Origin: a virus
Length of the DNA stretch: 21,472 bases
Direction: 5' to 3' (one strand)
IMG/VR virus record: IMGVR_UViG_3300045940_000057
Coordinates: 1 to 21,472 of that record
The notes below the pieces were generated by a model. That model worked only from the letters and a program-made list of their open reading frames with translations, searched no databases and had not been told where the DNA came from. The translations under genes were made by a program, and so were the position numbers. This document shows, piece after piece, positions 13,292 through 21,460 of the stretch (position 1 is the first letter of the stretch; each line of letters starts with the position of its first letter).

Positions 13292-15190
13292 ATGCCAGTC
13301 GTTTTCCCTTTTGACCCGGACTGGTCGCCGGGACTGCGCGAGCGCGGGGAATGGCTGACCGACGTCATGCCGGCCCGGGACGGGTTCGAGCAGCGCGTCA
13401 AGGTCCGGCAATCTCCGCGGCTGCGCCTCTCCTGGCGTACGATGGCGCTCGACGCCCGGGAACACGCGTTGCTCCACGCGCTGCTGTATGGCGTCCGGAC
13501 GAACGAGTTCATCGTCCCGATGTGGCAGGACAAGCAGCCGCTCACAGCGTCCGCCAATTCCGGAACCTCGACGCTCACCGTGGCGACCGAGTTCCGGCGG
13601 TTCGTCGCCGGCGGGCAGGCCCTCGTGTGGCGCGATCCCTACACGTTCGAGCTGGTGACGATCGACTCGTTCAACGCGACAACGATCACGATCGACGGGA
13701 CGCTCGCGAGTACCTGGGCGGGCGACGGTCAGAACTGGGTGATCCCGGTCCGACCGGGGATTCTCGATCCGGCGGCGATGCAGATCGTCGGGCCCGCGGC
13801 GGGCATTGTGGAGGTGTCGTTCCTTTGTGAAAGTGTTCCACAAGGAACAGAAACCGCGGACCTACTTGAGCTGGAGCCGAGCCGGAACGGCGACGTAAAC
13901 GCGTCGTTTGAACCTCGCGCCTCGAGGTTGGATTCCCTCTCTGGCGCGATCGCCACGGTCGCGCGCAGTCAGGCTCCTGCCGTCACCTGGAATCCGTTTG
14001 TCTGGATTTGCGACGGACGCGACGAGGCGGCGGAAATGCTGGAGTTCCTCTCCGCCCGGTCCGGCCGTCTCGTCCCGTGTTTCGTCCCCACCTGGCAGCG
14101 CGATCTCGTTCTGACTGAGCCGATCGCCGCGGACGCGACGGAGATCCGGATCCGGAAGTCCGGTTACACCGAATTTCTGTTCGATCGCGTGGGCCGCCAC
14201 AAGCTGGCGCTCCTGCTGTTCAACGGGCAGAAAGCCTATGTCAGCGTGACCGCGGCCGAGGTCGACGGCGACGAAGAGGTCCTGACGCTGGCAGAAGCGC
14301 CGGGGATCGCGGTTCCGGTCAATTCGATGGTGTCCTTCCACCGTTACGTGAGGCTGTCGACCGACGAGCCGGAACTGATCTGGCACACGACGGACGTCGC
14401 CGAGGCGGCGCTGGACTTCACGGAGCTCCTGCTCCCGCCGCTCTCGATCACGACGGCCTGCCCGGTGGGAGAGGTTCCCTACGGTGAAGCGTGGACGCTT
14501 CAGCTCCAGACCTCCGGCGGCGCGGGCGATCTCGAATGGACCATCGATGGGCCGGTGGGCATGACGATCTCCGAGACCGGAGAGATCGAGTTCGACGCCT
14601 ACGCGGATTTCGAATTCACGGCAACCGTGACGGACTCCGCCGGCCAGCAGGCCACGCTGACGTGTTCGGTCCAGGTGGCGTGGGCGATGCCTACGGCGCA
14701 CACGCTCAACCCGGCGCCGAACGATCCGCCCGAGTCCGCCGGCGTCCGCGGATCGATCGACGATCCGGAGTTCGCCTACGACAGCGACGAAGACAGCGCG
14801 ATGGTGATGGAGCTGAGCGGCGGTACCGGAACCTCCGTCTTTGCGACGTCACACTTCCACGGAATTCCCGATCCGCCGCCAGGGTTCACACAGGCGGTGT
14901 TTAAGGTGCGCTGGCGCTATGACCCCGGCGGCCAGGTGAACGGCGCCACGGCGAAGATCGGGGCCTTCGACGGCATCGCTCCGAACTTCGCCTCGAACGG
15001 ATTTGAAATCCTGTTTGTGGCCGGGAGTGACCTGGACTGGCAGGTGACGAGTTCTTTGCCCATGTCGGCAGCCGAATACAGCGCCATGGTGAGCCAGACG
15101 ATCCGCGTCGCCCACTATCACGTCTCCGGTGAGTTCGCGAACCCGAAGCCGAGACTCTTTATCGGCAAGCTTGGAGTGGTCTTTACCTGA
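13292..15190 (+). CDS. Distal tail/tip protein with duplicated core, Ig-like domain and C-terminal accessory domain
   Basis: 632 residues, right after the tape measure, the position of lambda M / distal tail genes. Residues ~50-180 and ~232-370 appear to be two related halves, each with a helix (ALDAREHALLHALL; RDEAAEMLEFLSA), an 'FIVPMWQ' or 'CFVPTWQ' strand and a following beta unit. The 'ARSGRLVPCFVPTWQRDL' segment is of a kind common in phage tail proteins. Residues ~388-463 are a He_PIG/Ig-like domain (GEVPYGEAWTLQLQTSGG ... TVTDSAGQQATLTCSV). Residues ~466-632 form an extra beta-rich domain of unknown type, perhaps carbohydrate binding. Start ATG lies 3 bases after the tape measure stop; the stop overlaps the next ATG (TGATG). 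Confidence 0.72.
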   Translation: MPVVFPFDPDWSPGLRERGEWLTDVMPARDGFEQRVKVRQSPRLRLSWRTMALDAREHALLHALLYGVRTNEFIVPMWQDKQPLTASANSGTSTLTVATEFRRFVAGGQALVWRDPYTFELVTIDSFNATTITIDGTLASTWAGDGQNWVIPVRPGILDPAAMQIVGPAAGIVEVSFLCESVPQGTETADLLELEPSRNGDVNASFEPRASRLDSLSGAIATVARSQAPAVTWNPFVWICDGRDEAAEMLEFLSARSGRLVPCFVPTWQRDLVLTEPIAADATEIRIRKSGYTEFLFDRVGRHKLALLLFNGQKAYVSVTAAEVDGDEEVLTLAEAPGIAVPVNSMVSFHRYVRLSTDEPELIWHTTDVAEAALDFTELLLPPLSITTACPVGEVPYGEAWTLQLQTSGGAGDLEWTIDGPVGMTISETGEIEFDAYADFEFTATVTDSAGQQATLTCSVQVAWAMPTAHTLNPAPNDPPESAGVRGSIDDPEFAYDSDEDSAMVMELSGGTGTSVFATSHFHGIPDPPPGFTQAVFKVRWRYDPGGQVNGATAKIGAFDGIAPNFASNGFEILFVAGSDLDWQVTSSLPMSAAEYSAMVSQTIRVAHYHVSGEFANPKPRLFIGKLGVVFT

Positions 15191-15986: not shown

Positions 15987-18455
15987 ATGTTTGGTCTTGC
16001 GATCCTCCTCATCGTCAATATCGGGCTGTCGGCTATCTCGGCAATCCTCAAGAACCGCACGGCGAAGAAGGAGGACTTCAAGGGCCCCACCGCTGAGGAG
16101 GGCCGGTCGATCCCGGTGATCTTCGGAACGGTGAAGGTGCAACCTCAGGTCAACTGGTGGGGCGATGTCAGCGTCGACGGAAACAAGTATTACGCTGGGA
16201 TGTGGTTCACGCTTTGCCACGGCCAGATCGACTCACTTGTCGCGATTAAGGCGGCTGAAACCAAAGACGTTCCTTTCACCGCCGCCGCGCCGACAATGGG
16301 CCCGGACGGCGAGGACTTCATACAAATCGAGATCGACGAAGAGGAACTGTTTGGCGGCGAGGATCACGAGGGCGGCCTGAAGGGCTTTATCGACCTCTAC
16401 CGCGGCGGCCAGGGCCACGAGCCCAATGAATACCTAGCCAGCGCCGACGCGCTCGGCGTGACTCCCCCGTCGTATCGTGGGATCTGCCATGCTGTTCTTG
16501 CGGCGCCTGGCGGTTTCTACTTCGGGACGACGCCCTACATCAAGCCGCTTTCGTTCGTGCTGCGCCGGCTGCCCGATCCGTTCAGTGAGCCGACGCTCAA
16601 GGATATCGATGGGAATGCAAACCCGGCGTTCATCATCGCGGAGATTCTGACAAACAAGGTGTGGGGCCTCGGGATCGCGATCGAGCGTCTCGACGAGGCG
16701 AACTTCGTGGAGCAGGCGCAAACGCTGTTTGACGAGGGTTTCGGGCTGAGCGTCCAGCTTGAGAACGACGTCCAGGCGGATGACCTGATCACGAACATTC
16801 TCCGGCATATCGACGCCGCGATTTATGTCGATCCTTCGACGAGCCTCTGGACGCTGCAGCTGATCCGGGCGGATTACGACTCCGAGGACCTCCCGCTCTT
16901 CACCGACGCGGACGTGATCGACGATTCCCTGAGCTACAACCGGGGATCGTGGGAAGAGACGGTCAATCACGTCACGGTGACGTTCACCGGGGAGGACTTC
17001 CGGGACCGCGTCGTTCAATCCCAGGACTCGGCGAACTTCACCACGCGCGGGGAGATTTCCCCGAACGCGATCAATTTCCCGTGGATTCACGACGTCACCA
17101 CCGGGCAGCGCGTCGTCTCGCGCGAGCTGCGGGCGCATGCCCTCCCGTGGGCGAAGCTCGAAATGACGACGAACCGCCGGGCATTCCAGCTGCGCATGGG
17201 CTCACCGTTCCGGTTCAGTTCGGAAGCTGAGGGTATCCCCGAGAAGGTGTTCCGCGTGGCCACGATCGATTACGGCACGCTGGAGCGGGGCCAGATTCGC
17301 ATCACGGCCGTCGAGGATGTGTTCGGCGCCGGCTTCATCCCGTTCGTCGATCCCGGTGATTCGCTCTGGGAAGAGCCTGTGCCGCCGCCCGAGGAAGCGC
17401 GGGCGATCCTGATGGAAGCGCCCTATCAGCTGCAGCACGACGATCTGATCCGCGTGCTCGTCCACGCGTCCAGGGAGGACACGACATCGAACAAGTTTGA
17501 GGTGTGGGTCAAAGACTTTGGCGTCTCGGATTTCTACAAAACGAAGACGATCGTCGGCTTCACGCCCACGGGATTGCTGAGCGCGGATTACAGCGCGTGC
17601 ACGGACGCGCTCGACGCGACGGGGTTCACGGTGGATTTCGAAAGCGATCTTCCTTTTCTCGAAAGTTGTACGGCGACGGAGCGTGATCTCGGAAAGAATC
17701 TGCTCCTCGTCGACAACGAGATCATGGCGTGGCAGACCGTCGTGAACAACGGGAACGGGACGTTCACGTTCACGAACCTCGTCCGCGGCGTATATGACAC
17801 GGTTCCCGCGGCGCACGCGGAAGGCGCTCGCGTCTGGTTCATCAGCAAGGCGTATTTTGACGGGCCGGATGATTTCATACTGACCAACACGATCAAGAAC
17901 ACGCCCTACACGGAGGACGAGACAGTCGACGTTAAGCCGCTGCCGGTGAATCTCTCCGGGCAGGTGGTTCCAATCGGCGACGTGACGGAGGTCACGATCG
18001 AAACGGACAGCCGCGCGCAGAAGCCCTACCCGCCGGGCAACGTGAAAGTGAACGACGAGGCGTGTCCGGCCGAGATCGTCGGGGACGCCGTTCTCACCTG
18101 GGCGCATCGGACGCGGATGATGCCGGATCGCGTCGTGATCCATCAGGACGCCGTGATCGTCGTCACGCCGGAGGGAACCTACACCGTGCAGGCGATCATC
18201 GACGGGGACGTGGTCCGCGAGTGGACCGGCCTCACGGGAACGTCCCAAACGTACACGCTCGCGGAGCGCGAGGCCGACGATCCGGATTTCAGCAAGCCGA
18301 CAACGCTGCGCATCTTCCCGGTGAACGGAGGACTTGAGGGAACTGTCCGGGACAAGACGTTCGTCATGCACCATCCGGGAAGCCCGATCGTCACGGAGGG
18401 TTTCGAGTTCTCTGGATCGCTGATCGTCACGGAAGGGTTTGGGTTTGGTTTGTAA
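15987..18455 (+). CDS. Central tail tip / host specificity protein (gpJ/TipJ-like, Phage-tail_3)
   Basis: 822 residues. N-terminal hydrophobic segment (residues 2-21), then 'GRSIPVIFGTVKVQPQVNWWGDV' in two adjoining parts (~39-61), a motif shared by TipJ-like tail proteins. Residues ~210-345 (IIAEILTNKVWGLGIA ... FVEQAQTLFDEGFGLSV ... WEETVNHVTVTF) match the Phage-tail_3 region that forms the tail hub of gpJ. Residues after ~470 look like fibronectin/beta modules that carry receptor contacts. The last 24 residues hold two copies of a 12-residue unit (PIVTEGFEFSGS, LIVTEGFGFGL). Its role would be opening the tube and recognising the host. It is shorter than lambda J (1132 residues), so the long C-terminal extension is missing and the fibres downstream may take over adsorption. 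Confidence 0.85.
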   Translation: MFGLAILLIVNIGLSAISAILKNRTAKKEDFKGPTAEEGRSIPVIFGTVKVQPQVNWWGDVSVDGNKYYAGMWFTLCHGQIDSLVAIKAAETKDVPFTAAAPTMGPDGEDFIQIEIDEEELFGGEDHEGGLKGFIDLYRGGQGHEPNEYLASADALGVTPPSYRGICHAVLAAPGGFYFGTTPYIKPLSFVLRRLPDPFSEPTLKDIDGNANPAFIIAEILTNKVWGLGIAIERLDEANFVEQAQTLFDEGFGLSVQLENDVQADDLITNILRHIDAAIYVDPSTSLWTLQLIRADYDSEDLPLFTDADVIDDSLSYNRGSWEETVNHVTVTFTGEDFRDRVVQSQDSANFTTRGEISPNAINFPWIHDVTTGQRVVSRELRAHALPWAKLEMTTNRRAFQLRMGSPFRFSSEAEGIPEKVFRVATIDYGTLERGQIRITAVEDVFGAGFIPFVDPGDSLWEEPVPPPEEARAILMEAPYQLQHDDLIRVLVHASREDTTSNKFEVWVKDFGVSDFYKTKTIVGFTPTGLLSADYSACTDALDATGFTVDFESDLPFLESCTATERDLGKNLLLVDNEIMAWQTVVNNGNGTFTFTNLVRGVYDTVPAAHAEGARVWFISKAYFDGPDDFILTNTIKNTPYTEDETVDVKPLPVNLSGQVVPIGDVTEVTIETDSRAQKPYPPGNVKVNDEACPAEIVGDAVLTWAHRTRMMPDRVVIHQDAVIVVTPEGTYTVQAIIDGDVVREWTGLTGTSQTYTLAEREADDPDFSKPTTLRIFPVNGGLEGTVRDKTFVMHHPGSPIVTEGFEFSGSLIVTEGFGFGL
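18386..18455 (+). repeat. Two-copy 36-bp coding repeat at the 3' end of the gpJ-like gene
   Basis: GATCGTCACGGAGGGTTT at 18386 recurs almost unchanged at 18422 (one base inserted before the T run and codon-level drift), a period of 36 bases or 12 residues. It encodes the tandem 'IVTEGFxF' units at the C-terminus. Short Gly-rich repeats of this type are seen at the ends of phage tail proteins. Confidence 0.7.
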
Positions 18456-18478
18456 GTTCGAAAAGGAACGGAGACGCC

Positions 18479-19555
18479 ATGCTTAGATTTTGCGATAGTT
18501 TTGATGCCCACTCGACCATTGCGACGCGTTACACGGTGGTCGCTACCAGCGACGCGCCGACGATTGCGACCTCGAACGCGCGAACGGGGTCGAACTGCAT
18601 GCAGTTCGCCAACGCGAACGCGAACGCGACGTGGGTCCGTTACGCTTCCCGGAGCATTGGGGCCAACGTCGCGGAAGTGATCGTCGGGTTTGCGTTTTAC
18701 ATGACCCAGCTTCCCTGGTCGGGAGACGCCTTGCGCGGTCAGCTTGTTTCGTTCATCGACTCTGCGACAAAGCAATGCGAGGTAAGGGTCAACTCCTCCG
18801 GTCAGATCGCGGCGTACAACGCGTCCGGCACGCTCGTCGGAACGTCCGCGGAAACACTGCCACTCAATTCGACATACGTGTTCATCGAAGTCCGGGCCCT
18901 GATTCACGCCAGCGCGGGACAGATTGAAGTCAGAGTTAACGGCGCGGTCTGGCTGAACCTGACGGGCCTCGACACGCTCGCCACGGCAAACGTGTATTGC
19001 AACGTGATCACGTTCGGCAACTTCACCGGCATGGGCACGGGCACAACGCAGCCGATCCTGGGATTCCGGGTCGACGATCTCTACATCATCGACGGAGACG
19101 ACAACTCGGATGGCCTTGACGATTTTATTGGCGATCACTCGATTCGCGCGTTTCTGCCGACCGGTGACGGTGACGAACTGGACTGGGCGCGCGGCGGCGC
19201 GGACAGCGGGAGCGATTCGGGTCAGATTGACGAAACCACGGCAAACTCGGACACGGACTACCTGACGACAAGCACGCCAACCGATCAACACCTTTCCACG
19301 TATGGCGATTTGTCTGTCGGAACCATCAAGGCTGTCGTGATCACGCCGTTCGCGCGCAAGGACAACGGCGGAGCGACAACGCTTCTCGGGCTCACCAAGA
19401 GCGGCGGAACGATCTATCAAACCGCCGATTCGATGACGCTCACGACGGGCTATCAGCTGGGATTTCTGAAGTTCGTTGAAAATCCCGACACGTCGGCGCC
19501 GTGGACGATCACGGAATTCAATAATGCTCAGTTCGGATTCGAGGCGAGCGCCTAA
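18479..19555 (+). CDS. Tail fibre-type protein with LamG/concanavalin-like fold
   Basis: 358 residues. The opening MLRFCDSFDAHSTIATRY is a pattern I associate with phage proteins that begin 'FDSFDHYAT' and carry a LamG-like jelly roll. Strands such as EVIVGFAFYMTQLP, GQIEVRVNGAVWLNLTG and the 'FRVDDLYIIDGDD' segment (DDLYI..D) complete that domain at about residues 5-205. A second part follows, 'FIGDHSIRAFLPTGDGDELDW' (two pieces), then residues up to the end with 'DTDYLTTSTPTDQHL'. These proteins probably bind surface glycans. AAGGAACGGAG precedes the ATG in a 23-base gap. Stop overlaps the next start (TAATG). Confidence 0.72.
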   Translation: MLRFCDSFDAHSTIATRYTVVATSDAPTIATSNARTGSNCMQFANANANATWVRYASRSIGANVAEVIVGFAFYMTQLPWSGDALRGQLVSFIDSATKQCEVRVNSSGQIAAYNASGTLVGTSAETLPLNSTYVFIEVRALIHASAGQIEVRVNGAVWLNLTGLDTLATANVYCNVITFGNFTGMGTGTTQPILGFRVDDLYIIDGDDNSDGLDDFIGDHSIRAFLPTGDGDELDWARGGADSGSDSGQIDETTANSDTDYLTTSTPTDQHLSTYGDLSVGTIKAVVITPFARKDNGGATTLLGLTKSGGTIYQTADSMTLTTGYQLGFLKFVENPDTSAPWTITEFNNAQFGFEASA

Positions 19556-19770
19556 TGGCCGCGCGCGTCAGTCAGGGTCTCGTCGAAGCGATCACGGAGA
19601 ATCCAACCGTCCGGGTGAGTCAAAACGTGGTCGAATCCCTCACGGCGGATCCAACCGTTCGTGTGAGTCAGTGTCTCGTCGAAGTGCTGATTCCGGCGTC
19701 GGGCGGCGGTCCATTAAACGAGGGAATTCTCACGCGCTGCCGGCTGACTGAAGGAAAACTGATCGGATGA
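19555..19770 (+). CDS. Short tandem-repeat protein (RVSQ repeats), adsorption module
   Basis: 71 residues. Residues 4-48 hold three tandem 16-residue units: RVSQGLVEAITENPTV, RVSQNVVESLTADPTV and a partial RVSQCLVEVLIPAS. Each unit looks like two beta strands (RVSQxLVExL) with a Pro turn, so the protein could form an extended or beta-helical filament. I have a recollection of similar 'RVTQL.VEVL' repeat proteins beside phage fibre genes; I cannot verify it here. The tail after residue 49 is Gly-rich then basic (GGGPLNEGILTRCRLTEGKL). Overlaps the LamG-like gene (TAATG). Role unknown; attachment or capping of fibres is a reasonable guess. Confidence 0.68.
   Translation: MAARVSQGLVEAITENPTVRVSQNVVESLTADPTVRVSQCLVEVLIPASGGGPLNEGILTRCRLTEGKLIG
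19564..19700 (+). repeat. Three tandem 48-bp coding repeats
   Basis: Units begin at 19564, 19612 and 19660, an exact 48-base period; the third is incomplete. Codons differ between copies (CGC, CGG, CGT for the leading Arg) while residues are kept, so the repeat is maintained at protein level rather than by recent duplication. Confidence 0.8.
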
Positions 19771-19783
19771 CAGGAGAGATTTT

Positions 19784-20830
19784 ATGATCCCTTTCGGAAA
19801 GGTCCACCCTGGTTCAACGCTCTATGTGCCGTTTGCTTCGTTCGCCGCGGGGACAGGCGCAAACGCTGTCGTCTCTAACTTCGTCGTGGGTGATATCAAA
19901 ATCTACAAGAACGGCGGAACCACGGAGCGCGCGTCGACGACAGGGTTCACGTTGCTGGACACGGACGGAATCGATTTTGACGGACTGGTCGGCGCCAATG
20001 GATTCTCGATCGATCTTTCCAGCAACGCGACCGCCGATTTCTTCACGGCCGGGGCGTCGTACTTCGTGTTCGTGTCAACCGTCACGATCGATTCACAGAC
20101 AATCACGTTTTTGGCCGCGACATTCTCGATCGGCTATGAGGGCGCGCTGATCGATACGACGATCGCGTCGCTGTCGTCGCAGACGTCGTTCACGCTCAGC
20201 ACCGGCCCGGCCGAAGACGACGCGCTGAACGGTTGCCGGGTGATCATTCATGACATTGCGAGCGCCGTCCAGCTGGGATTGGGGCTGATCACGGATTACG
20301 TTGGAGCGAGTAAGACCGTCACGCTGGCCGCCGGCGTAACGTTCACGGCCGCGGCGGGAGACAACATTTCGATTCTGGCGCCGATCGATGTGCACAGGGT
20401 AGGTGGAACGGTTCAGACGCCCGGCGACATTCCGGCGATGCTGACGACGATCGACGATTTCGTCGATACGGAAGTGCTCGCCATCAAGGCGAAAACCGAC
20501 AACCTGCCATCCGATCCTGCGGATCAATCCCTGATCATCGCGGCGACGGACGCGATCATGACGCGCCTCGGGACCCCAGTGGGGGCGGACCTGTCCGCCG
20601 ATATCGCTGGCGTCCCGGACGCGGTCGGCGGTCGCGTGATTCCGGAGACTGTCGCAGCGGTGGGTGTCGAGCCGACACTCGATCAGGCCTTATCGTTGCT
20701 CCTGGCGCGCAAGTTTAATTTCGAAATCGACGGCGAGACGCTCCGAATCTACGCGCTTGATGGCGATACGGAGATTGCCACGTTGGACATTGGCGCGGCG
20801 CCGCACACGAGTTGTTTCAGGGCGACGTAG
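19784..20830 (+). CDS. Tail fibre / receptor-binding candidate
   Basis: 348 residues. Residues 1-118 form a domain I recognise from many phage fibre loci: MIPFGKVHPGSTLYVPFASF, then DIKIYKNGGTTERASTTGF, then LLDTDGIDFDGLVGANGFS-like and a final strand IDSQTITFLAATF. It is probably the tail-attachment end. Residues ~125-200 are another beta unit (SLSSQTSFTLSTGPAEDDAL). Residues ~205-255 are helical (DDFVDTEVLAIKAKTDNLPS), probably a trimeric coiled-coil neck. The C-terminus (LLARKFNFEIDGETLRIYAL) is a small strand-rich tip. AGGAGAG stands 6-7 bases before the ATG. It is the last + strand gene of the operon and ends 15 bases before the convergent membrane gene. Confidence 0.72.
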   Translation: MIPFGKVHPGSTLYVPFASFAAGTGANAVVSNFVVGDIKIYKNGGTTERASTTGFTLLDTDGIDFDGLVGANGFSIDLSSNATADFFTAGASYFVFVSTVTIDSQTITFLAATFSIGYEGALIDTTIASLSSQTSFTLSTGPAEDDALNGCRVIIHDIASAVQLGLGLITDYVGASKTVTLAAGVTFTAAAGDNISILAPIDVHRVGGTVQTPGDIPAMLTTIDDFVDTEVLAIKAKTDNLPSDPADQSLIIAATDAIMTRLGTPVGADLSADIAGVPDAVGGRVIPETVAAVGVEPTLDQALSLLLARKFNFEIDGETLRIYALDGDTEIATLDIGAAPHTSCFRAT

Positions 20831-20845: not shown

Positions 20846-21460
20846 TTAGCGGGCGCCAACGAGCGCCCGCTGATCTCGGCGAACCTTGCTTGCTGGTCGG
20901 AAACCAGAATACATCGCGACGGACATCTTCGATCCGACCTGAGTCGAGCCGCCAAGCATAGGTGGCAGGCTCCGGCGAATGGACAGATTTTCGAGTTTGC
21001 CCGCGAGGTATCCGATGAGCGCCAGAGGCATGACCGCCAACAACAGTAGCGGCGATCGAAAGATCACATAGGCCAGGCTCGCAAGCCAGGCGTCGTTTCT
21101 GATCGCTGAAAGCCCCTTTTTCTGTTCCTCGCTGAGAGATGACGCCATCAGCGGATCGTTGACCTTGAACAGCGGACAGGGCCAAATAATGACCTGGATC
21201 GCAATGACGATGATCCGGACCACGCTGAGCCTATGCGCAAATCGAATCATTCGATTCAATGATTCCCGGAGCTCGATGTATGTCTCGGAATCAAATCGGA
21301 TGTTCCCTTCCGCGGCGTAAGCGAACAGCCTGTCGCGCGCCTTGAACAGTTCAAAGCGATATTCTTCCAGGATGGTTGGGCGAAAACAGCGGTACCAAAG
21401 GAACCAGAGAAAGCCCAAGCCAATGACGATTTTAATCGTGGTCATCGGGTCAGAGATCAT
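20846..21460 (-). CDS. Hypothetical membrane protein, convergent to the fibre gene
   Basis: 204 residues, not recognised. Hydrophobic segments at about 9-24 (IVIGLGFLWFLWYRCF), 80-96 (VVRIIVIAIQVIIWPC) and 132-155 (VIFRSPLLLLAVMPLALIGYL) suggest three membrane passes, with a charged cytoplasmic or periplasmic part between (EYRFELFKARDRLFAYAAEG) and a basic C-terminal tail (RPASKVRRDQRALVG). I took the ATG at 21460, with GGACGA upstream; an in-frame ATG at 21445 is possible. It is transcribed against the late operon and is less GC-rich, so it could be a lysogenic-conversion (moron) gene, a superinfection-exclusion protein or the first host gene beyond a prophage. The sequence does not decide. 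Confidence 0.6.
   Translation of the reverse strand: MISDPMTTIKIVIGLGFLWFLWYRCFRPTILEEYRFELFKARDRLFAYAAEGNIRFDSETYIELRESLNRMIRFAHRLSVVRIIVIAIQVIIWPCPLFKVNDPLMASSLSEEQKKGLSAIRNDAWLASLAYVIFRSPLLLLAVMPLALIGYLAGKLENLSIRRSLPPMLGGSTQVGSKMSVAMYSGFRPASKVRRDQRALVGAR
20848..20871. terminator. Perfect hairpin between convergent genes, possible terminator
   Basis: AGCGGGCGC-CAACGA-GCGCCCGCT: 9-bp perfect GC-rich stem with a 6-base loop, just after the fibre stop (20830) and overlapping the last codons of the minus-strand gene. Location between convergent genes fits a bidirectional terminator. No T-tract follows on either strand, so efficiency as an intrinsic terminator is doubtful. Confidence 0.45.

What the first reader, a model, noticed from the sequence alone, without database searches (positions are those of the whole stretch)
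18386..19700. Two different short-repeat families at adjacent adsorption loci
The gpJ-like protein ends in tandem 12-residue 'IVTEGFxF' units, and two genes later a 71-residue protein consists mainly of 16-residue 'RVSQxLVExL..PTV' units. Both are short, beta-prone and Gly/Pro-turned. They may be docking strands by which the fibres attach to the tip, or a copy-number-variable element that tunes adsorption. I do not know a described function for the RVSQ repeats.
Basis: partly seen in the sequence, partly recalled or inferred. Interest (0 to 1): 0.6.

Follow-up and report, generated by a model that had tools for sequence, protein, structure and literature searches.

The report
Short repeats docking phage tail adhesins
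A small phage protein made of short repeats is encoded right after a sugar-binding-type tail protein, the same gene pair recurs in very different phages, and its fusion to tail-tip proteins in some of them suggests that it is the peg-rail on which the phage hangs its host-gripping proteins.

Summary
Both repeats are real. The gpJ-like hub (15987-18455) ends in two 12-residue IVTEGFxF units. A 71-aa ORF (19555-19767), overlapping the stop of a two-domain lectin-like fibre gene, is two-thirds RVSQxxVExL units (3 x 16 aa). The RVSQ unit is widespread and unnamed: no Pfam or NCBIfam family, 'unknown' in PHROGs. In 29 of about 39 IMG/VR loci found by the repeat, the gene just upstream is a fibre of the window's family. 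In an unbiased fibre sample, 46 of 73 following genes carry short tandem repeats (9 of 142 controls). In several lineages the array is fused to the tail tip itself: to the distal tail protein (relative of JBD30 gp49, whose N-terminal loop wraps the fibres) or, once, to the hub C-terminus. I conclude that RVSQ arrays are docking rails for lectin-like adhesins. The IVTEGFxF tail sits where JBD30's hub docks its receptor-binding protein. No binding was shown: AlphaFold leaves the repeats unstructured and undocked. Phage Chi has four such fibre genes, then a 709-aa repeat protein whose extended length (234 nm) matches its ~220-nm fibre, a testable guess. Copy-number tuning is not supported: 17 Caulobacter phage records all keep three units.

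The parts
15987..18455 (+). gpJ/GTA-type baseplate hub protein (822 aa), relative of JBD30 hub gp53 and of PDB 8vjh 'minor tail protein'
   Evidence: phrog_1101 E 7e-189, phrog_6284 1e-109; Phage-tail_3, Rcc01698_C; PDB 8vjh_A 2e-57, 8rk3_o 9e-55
18387..18452 (+). two tandem 12-residue IVTEGFxF units, the hub's C-terminal tail
   Evidence: aligned with the JBD30 hub docking tail and with xGYGxxYGxxxGG tails of other hubs
18479..19555 (+). two-domain lectin-like fibre/adhesin (358 aa): N-terminal jelly-roll domain plus conserved C-terminal domain
   Evidence: phrog_2448 1.7e-27; family alignment A2; fold of relative L038: N-domain Z 16 to ConA/CBM-type domains
19124..19552 (+). conserved C-terminal domain of the fibre, proposed docking domain
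   Evidence: more conserved than the N-domain (0.35 against 0.29 mean identity); repeat type tracks its tree
19555..19770 (+). RVSQ repeat protein (71 aa), proposed stand-alone docking array
19561..19704 (+). three 16-residue RVSQxxVExL units
13292..15190 (+). distal-tail protein (GTA g12-like), relative of JBD30 gp49 residues 176-559; here without the N-terminal fibre-wrapping extension
   Evidence: phmmer to JBD30 gp49 1.3e-28, to array-bearing relatives L026 5.5e-40 and L042 1e-47
19784..20830 (+). second putative fibre/adhesin (348 aa), unresolved
   Evidence: weak phrog_496 tail fiber E 0.03

Best explanation
The RVSQ protein is a small docking array. Each 16-19-residue unit is an extended peptide that binds one copy of the neighbouring lectin-like fibre protein, probably through the fibre's conserved C-terminal domain, so that an array of n units hangs several adhesins on the tail tip. 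In this phage the array is a separate 71-aa protein with three units. In relatives it is the N- or C-terminus of the distal tail protein or, with another unit sequence, the C-terminus of the hub. The IVTEGFxF pair is the equivalent docking tail of the hub for a receptor-binding protein, as the hub C-terminus is in JBD30. Shown here: the repeats, the gene pairing, the fusions, the two-domain lectin-like fibre. Inferred: physical binding, one adhesin per unit, the C-domain as partner, how the free 71-aa protein is itself anchored, and which adhesin the hub tail holds.
For: Conserved pair: repeat-first sample, 29 loci with a fibre-family gene directly upstream of the repeat gene, and several of the remaining records also hold a fibre gene. 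Fibre-first sample, independent of the repeat: 46 of 73 next genes carry tandem units, mostly of period 16-20 aa, against 9 of 142 control genes. Named phages: Caulobacter CcrSwift gp98-gp99, Mesorhizobium Cp1R7A-A1 gp113-gp112, Brevundimonas Leszy/BabaJaga, Chi-like phages. Fusions: L026 has 11 RVSQ units N-terminal to the distal tail protein, order TMP-fibre-array::Dit; L042 has three RVSQ units C-terminal to it with the fibre gene next; L134 and L161 carry other repeats N-terminal to it; L110 has six ~19-aa repeats at the hub C-terminus followed directly by the fibre gene. Structural precedent: JBD30 gp49 N-terminal domain wraps around the tail fibres, and the gp53 C-terminus docks into the receptor-binding trimer (PMC11445458). 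Repeat type follows the fibre C-domain tree (5 changes, 0 of 200 shuffles as low) better than the N-domain tree (8 changes, 8 of 200).
Against: AlphaFold on a natural fibre-stop-array read-through did not dock the repeats (pLDDT 33-55; C-domain plus array). The model is a single chain and the array part of the alignment had only 10 rows, so this is weak evidence, but it is not support. About a third of fibre genes have no detectable repeats in the next gene. No virion evidence: phiCbK proteomics found eight proteins and neither the repeat protein nor the fibre (PMC3556154). Many arrays sit in large proteins not tied to Dit or hub. The tree test has few non-RVSQ labels (44/6/4) and could reflect ancestry.
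Confidence: 0.6

Rival explanations
1. The small protein after the fibre gene is an assembly chaperone for the fibre (like Tfa or T4 gp38/gp57) and is not in the virion.
For: Position directly downstream with overlapping stop/start, small size, no virion detection in phiCbK.
Against: The same units occur inside structural tail proteins and in proteins of 500-1000 aa; a chaperone does not need 2-11 tandem units.
Confidence: 0.15
2. The repeats form a self-assembled fibre shaft (for example a trimeric beta-spiral of 15-18-residue repeats) carrying or extending the adhesins.
For: Repeat length near the 15 residues of the adenovirus triple beta-spiral (own knowledge); turns rich in Gly/Pro.
Against: Three units are far too short for a shaft; AlphaFold gives no solenoid or strand ladder, though trimers cannot be tested there; the pairing with one fibre family is not explained.
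Confidence: 0.12
3. The units are themselves receptor-binding modules whose number tunes adsorption.
For: Adsorption locus; unit number differs between lineages; some arrays have near-identical neighbouring copies.
Against: The motif R-V-[ST]-Q-x-x-V-E-V-L is shared by phages of very different hosts, unlike a host-range element; 17 Caulobacter phage records all keep three units.
Confidence: 0.07

Closest known systems
JBD30 baseplate: gp49 N-terminal domain I wrapping tail fibres; gp53 C-terminus docked in the gp54 trimer (PMC11445458)
   Same: Homologous distal tail protein and hub; an extended peptide of the tail tip holds adhesins; fibre genes lie beside the distal-tail gene in L026 and L042 as gp47/gp48 do in JBD30
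   Different: JBD30 gp47/gp48 were not found to belong to the lectin-like family; its wrapping domain has no recognised tandem repeat; here the array is a separate protein
phiCbK/CcrSwift gp98 (phrog_13560) with gp99 (phrog_2448)
   Same: Stand-alone 69-aa protein with three units beside the same fibre family
   Different: Repeat gene lies upstream of the fibre gene; function never described
Chi-like phages gp32-gp35 plus gp36 (phrog_7226)
   Same: Fibre family genes followed by a protein built in part of strand-like repeats; hub and distal tail protein homologous
   Different: Units of 25 aa in the best-defined C-terminal part, 709 aa in all; not hit by the RVSQ unit profile
Adenovirus triple beta-spiral shaft
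   Same: Repeat length of 15-18 residues
   Different: No shaft predicted, three units only

Membership tests
GTA/JBD30-type baseplate hub | Phage-tail_3 and Rcc01698_C domains and full-length homology to a solved hub | tested here: met
GTA/JBD30-type baseplate hub | C-terminal tail docks a receptor-binding protein | not testable with these tools
   position matches; no complex predicted
phrog_2448 lectin-like fibre family | Full-length match and two-domain architecture | tested here: met
RVSQ repeat family (phrog_13560 and relatives) | Tandem units R-V-[ST]-Q-x-x-V-E-x-L, 15-19 aa | tested here: met
   unit profile E 2e-14, three units; the profile's seed included the window's units; PHROG match alone weak, E 0.016
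RVSQ repeat family (phrog_13560 and relatives) | Adjacent to a phrog_2448-type fibre gene | tested here: met
Docking array for adhesins | Direct binding of units to the fibre | tested here: inconclusive
   AlphaFold single-chain read-through, array pLDDT 33-55, not docked
Folded fibre shaft (triple beta-spiral or solenoid) | Confident repetitive fold of the array | tested here: inconclusive
   none seen in monomer models; trimer not possible
Tfa-type fibre chaperone | Homology to a known chaperone family | tested here: inconclusive
   no Pfam or NCBIfam family above its cut-off

The most novel reading that the evidence does not exclude
A general 'beads on a string' adhesin: one extended polypeptide of short repeats threads or carries many copies of small two-domain lectin-like proteins. 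In phage Chi the single ~220-nm flagellum-gripping fibre would be one extended gp36 chain (709 residues x 0.33 nm = 234 nm) decorated by gp32-gp35, and the window's RVSQ protein is a minimal three-bead version.
Probability: 0.25. Interest if true: 0.88.

Novelty: new variant of a known kind. Interest (0 to 1): 0.62.

Why it matters
It gives a testable function to families annotated only as 'unknown' (phrog_13560/phrog_7226 and phrog_2448), found in phages of Caulobacter, Mesorhizobium, Brevundimonas, Salmonella and other hosts, and to a class of 'repeat of unknown function' at tail tips. It offers a simple modular rule for how phages swap and multiply adhesins: match the peg to the adhesin's base. 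It also offers a candidate for the long fibre of phage Chi, whose protein make-up was still described as unshown in 2023 (PMC10399903).

Tried and rejected
Direct searches with the window's 71-aa and fibre proteins in IMG/VR found nothing, because the tool reaches only close relatives; patterns and a consensus query were needed. IVTEGF[GED]F as a DNA pattern gave two chance hits, so this tail has no close relative at hand. Natural fibre::repeat single-gene fusions were sought and not found. AlphaFold on a read-through of fibre stop plus array, whole and C-domain only, gave no docking. PDB sequence search with the array consensus gave mostly designed proteins, rejected as chance. JBD30 gp55, the gene after its RBP, is not a repeat protein. 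The fold of the fibre C-domain stayed unclear (best Z 7.3, CBM-type sandwiches), though the same fold is predicted in many phage proteins. Literature search for the motif found no paper on it.

Full report
WHAT IS THERE. The window is a 21.5-kb IMG/VR fragment of a siphophage-type tail module. The gpJ-like protein is a baseplate hub of the GTA/JBD30 kind. It ends in two perfect-period 12-aa IVTEGFxF units. Next comes a 358-aa fibre (phrog_2448, unknown function), then, with overlapping stop/start, the 71-aa RVSQ protein, then a second 348-aa adhesin-like protein. Both repeats exceed chance (0 of 1000 shuffles).

THE RVSQ UNIT IS WIDESPREAD. A synthetic consensus found the unit in Caulobacter phages and a 595-kb uncultured phage (E 1e-5 to 3e-4), with marginal matches in Brevundimonas and Chi-like phages that the translations bear out by eye. 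A DNA pattern found 42 IMG/VR loci, about 39 of them real. The unit is [A]-R-V-[ST]-Q-x-x-V-E-V-L plus 5-8 turn residues; in 109 units chosen for R, Q and E, the residues V, [ST], V, V and L are also strongly preferred. Arrays have 1-11 units, mode 3. They occur as proteins of 67-120 aa or as parts of larger proteins, often beside other short repeats (L024 holds RVSQ and KSGFG units in one protein).

IT TRAVELS WITH ONE ADHESIN FAMILY. In 29 of the RVSQ loci the gene directly upstream is a fibre of the window's family; further records hold such a fibre near or elsewhere. To avoid circularity I sampled the fibre by its own C-terminal motif. Of 73 genes directly after a fibre, 26 carry RVSQ units and 46 carry RVSQ or another tandem short repeat, mostly with a period of 16-20 aa; 9 of 142 control genes do. 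The other repeats have different letters but a similar shape: RVTRQxVEVLG, VRLTAANVNVL, VSKVSRYDV, QAALVELDAQSVRAS.

FUSIONS TO THE TAIL TIP. The window's 13292-15190 protein is a relative of JBD30 gp49, the distal tail protein, residues 176-559, and lacks the N-terminal part. In L026 that N-terminal part is 11 RVSQ units; in L134 and L161 it is other tandem repeats; in L071/L153 a repeat ORF ends in the first residues of the distal tail protein. In L042 three RVSQ units form its C-terminus, with the fibre gene next. In L110 the hub itself ends in six ~19-aa repeats (QVAALERFTLI) followed at once by the fibre gene. [quoted passage not shown] The window's IVTEGFxF units begin where that tail begins; several other hubs there end in xGYGxxYGxxxGG.

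STRUCTURE. AlphaFold of L038 fibre plus array (stop read as Gly) gives a confident two-domain fibre (pLDDT about 92). The N-domain is a jelly-roll of lectin/CBM type (Z 16; also phage J-1 Dit CBM2 and the Douge baseplate). The C-domain is more conserved, without a clear PDB match. The repeats are low-confidence and undocked in both jobs. Repeat type follows the C-domain tree better than the N-domain tree; the numbers are small.

CHI. Phage Chi has four genes of the fibre family (gp32-35; gp33 and gp34 E 1e-38) followed by gp36, 709 aa, with seven regular 25-aa units near its C-terminus and less regular ones before. Relatives of gp36 occur in 160 phage records and of the fibre in 202, with closely similar host lists. 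The single Chi fibre is about 220 nm long (PMC9266447); an extended gp36 chain would be 234 nm. Chi's fibre protein was called unshown in 2023 (PMC10399903). From memory, immunogold in the relative YSD1 assigned its fibre to YSD1_29, which may be another gene; this counts against the idea and could not be read here.

CONCLUSION. A docking rail for lectin-like adhesins is the most economical reading of the pairing and the fusions (0.6). Chaperone, shaft and receptor-binding readings remain. Copy-number tuning is not supported by the Caulobacter phages.

Noticed in passing
19784-20830: 348-aa protein of another adhesin type (starts MIPFGKVHPGSTLYVPF) with a helical, coiled-coil-like C-terminal part by eye; may be the trimeric receptor-binding protein held by the hub tail.
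   Followed up: no
L042:150-1928: The distal-tail protein also has five N-terminal 'VPVKRLSLGLHMRRVSAD' repeats, a further repeat type opposite the RVSQ end; perhaps for a second adhesin.
   Followed up: partly
L167:14142-16271 (phage Chi gp36): 709-aa repeat protein after four lectin-like genes; extended length matches the reported length of the Chi tail fibre.
   Followed up: partly
L024:3-1352: One protein carries RVSQ units flanked by KSGFGKVG-type units, so two repeat kinds can share a chain.
   Followed up: no
L018:4971-7763 (Erythrobacter phage R6L hub): Hub C-terminus GDLRLTEDGDVRATEAGDLRVLEA, a tandem TE-containing tail reminiscent of IVTEGF.
   Followed up: no
GU169904.1 (Staphylococcus phage SA1) 8515-13900: A record named as a 147-kb Staphylococcus phage holds both the Chi-type fibre and the Chi-type repeat gene; may be a mixed assembly.
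   Followed up: no
20846-21460, minus strand: 204-aa ORF on the opposite strand after the tail module, match to phrog_13156 of unknown function (E 3e-15).
   Followed up: no
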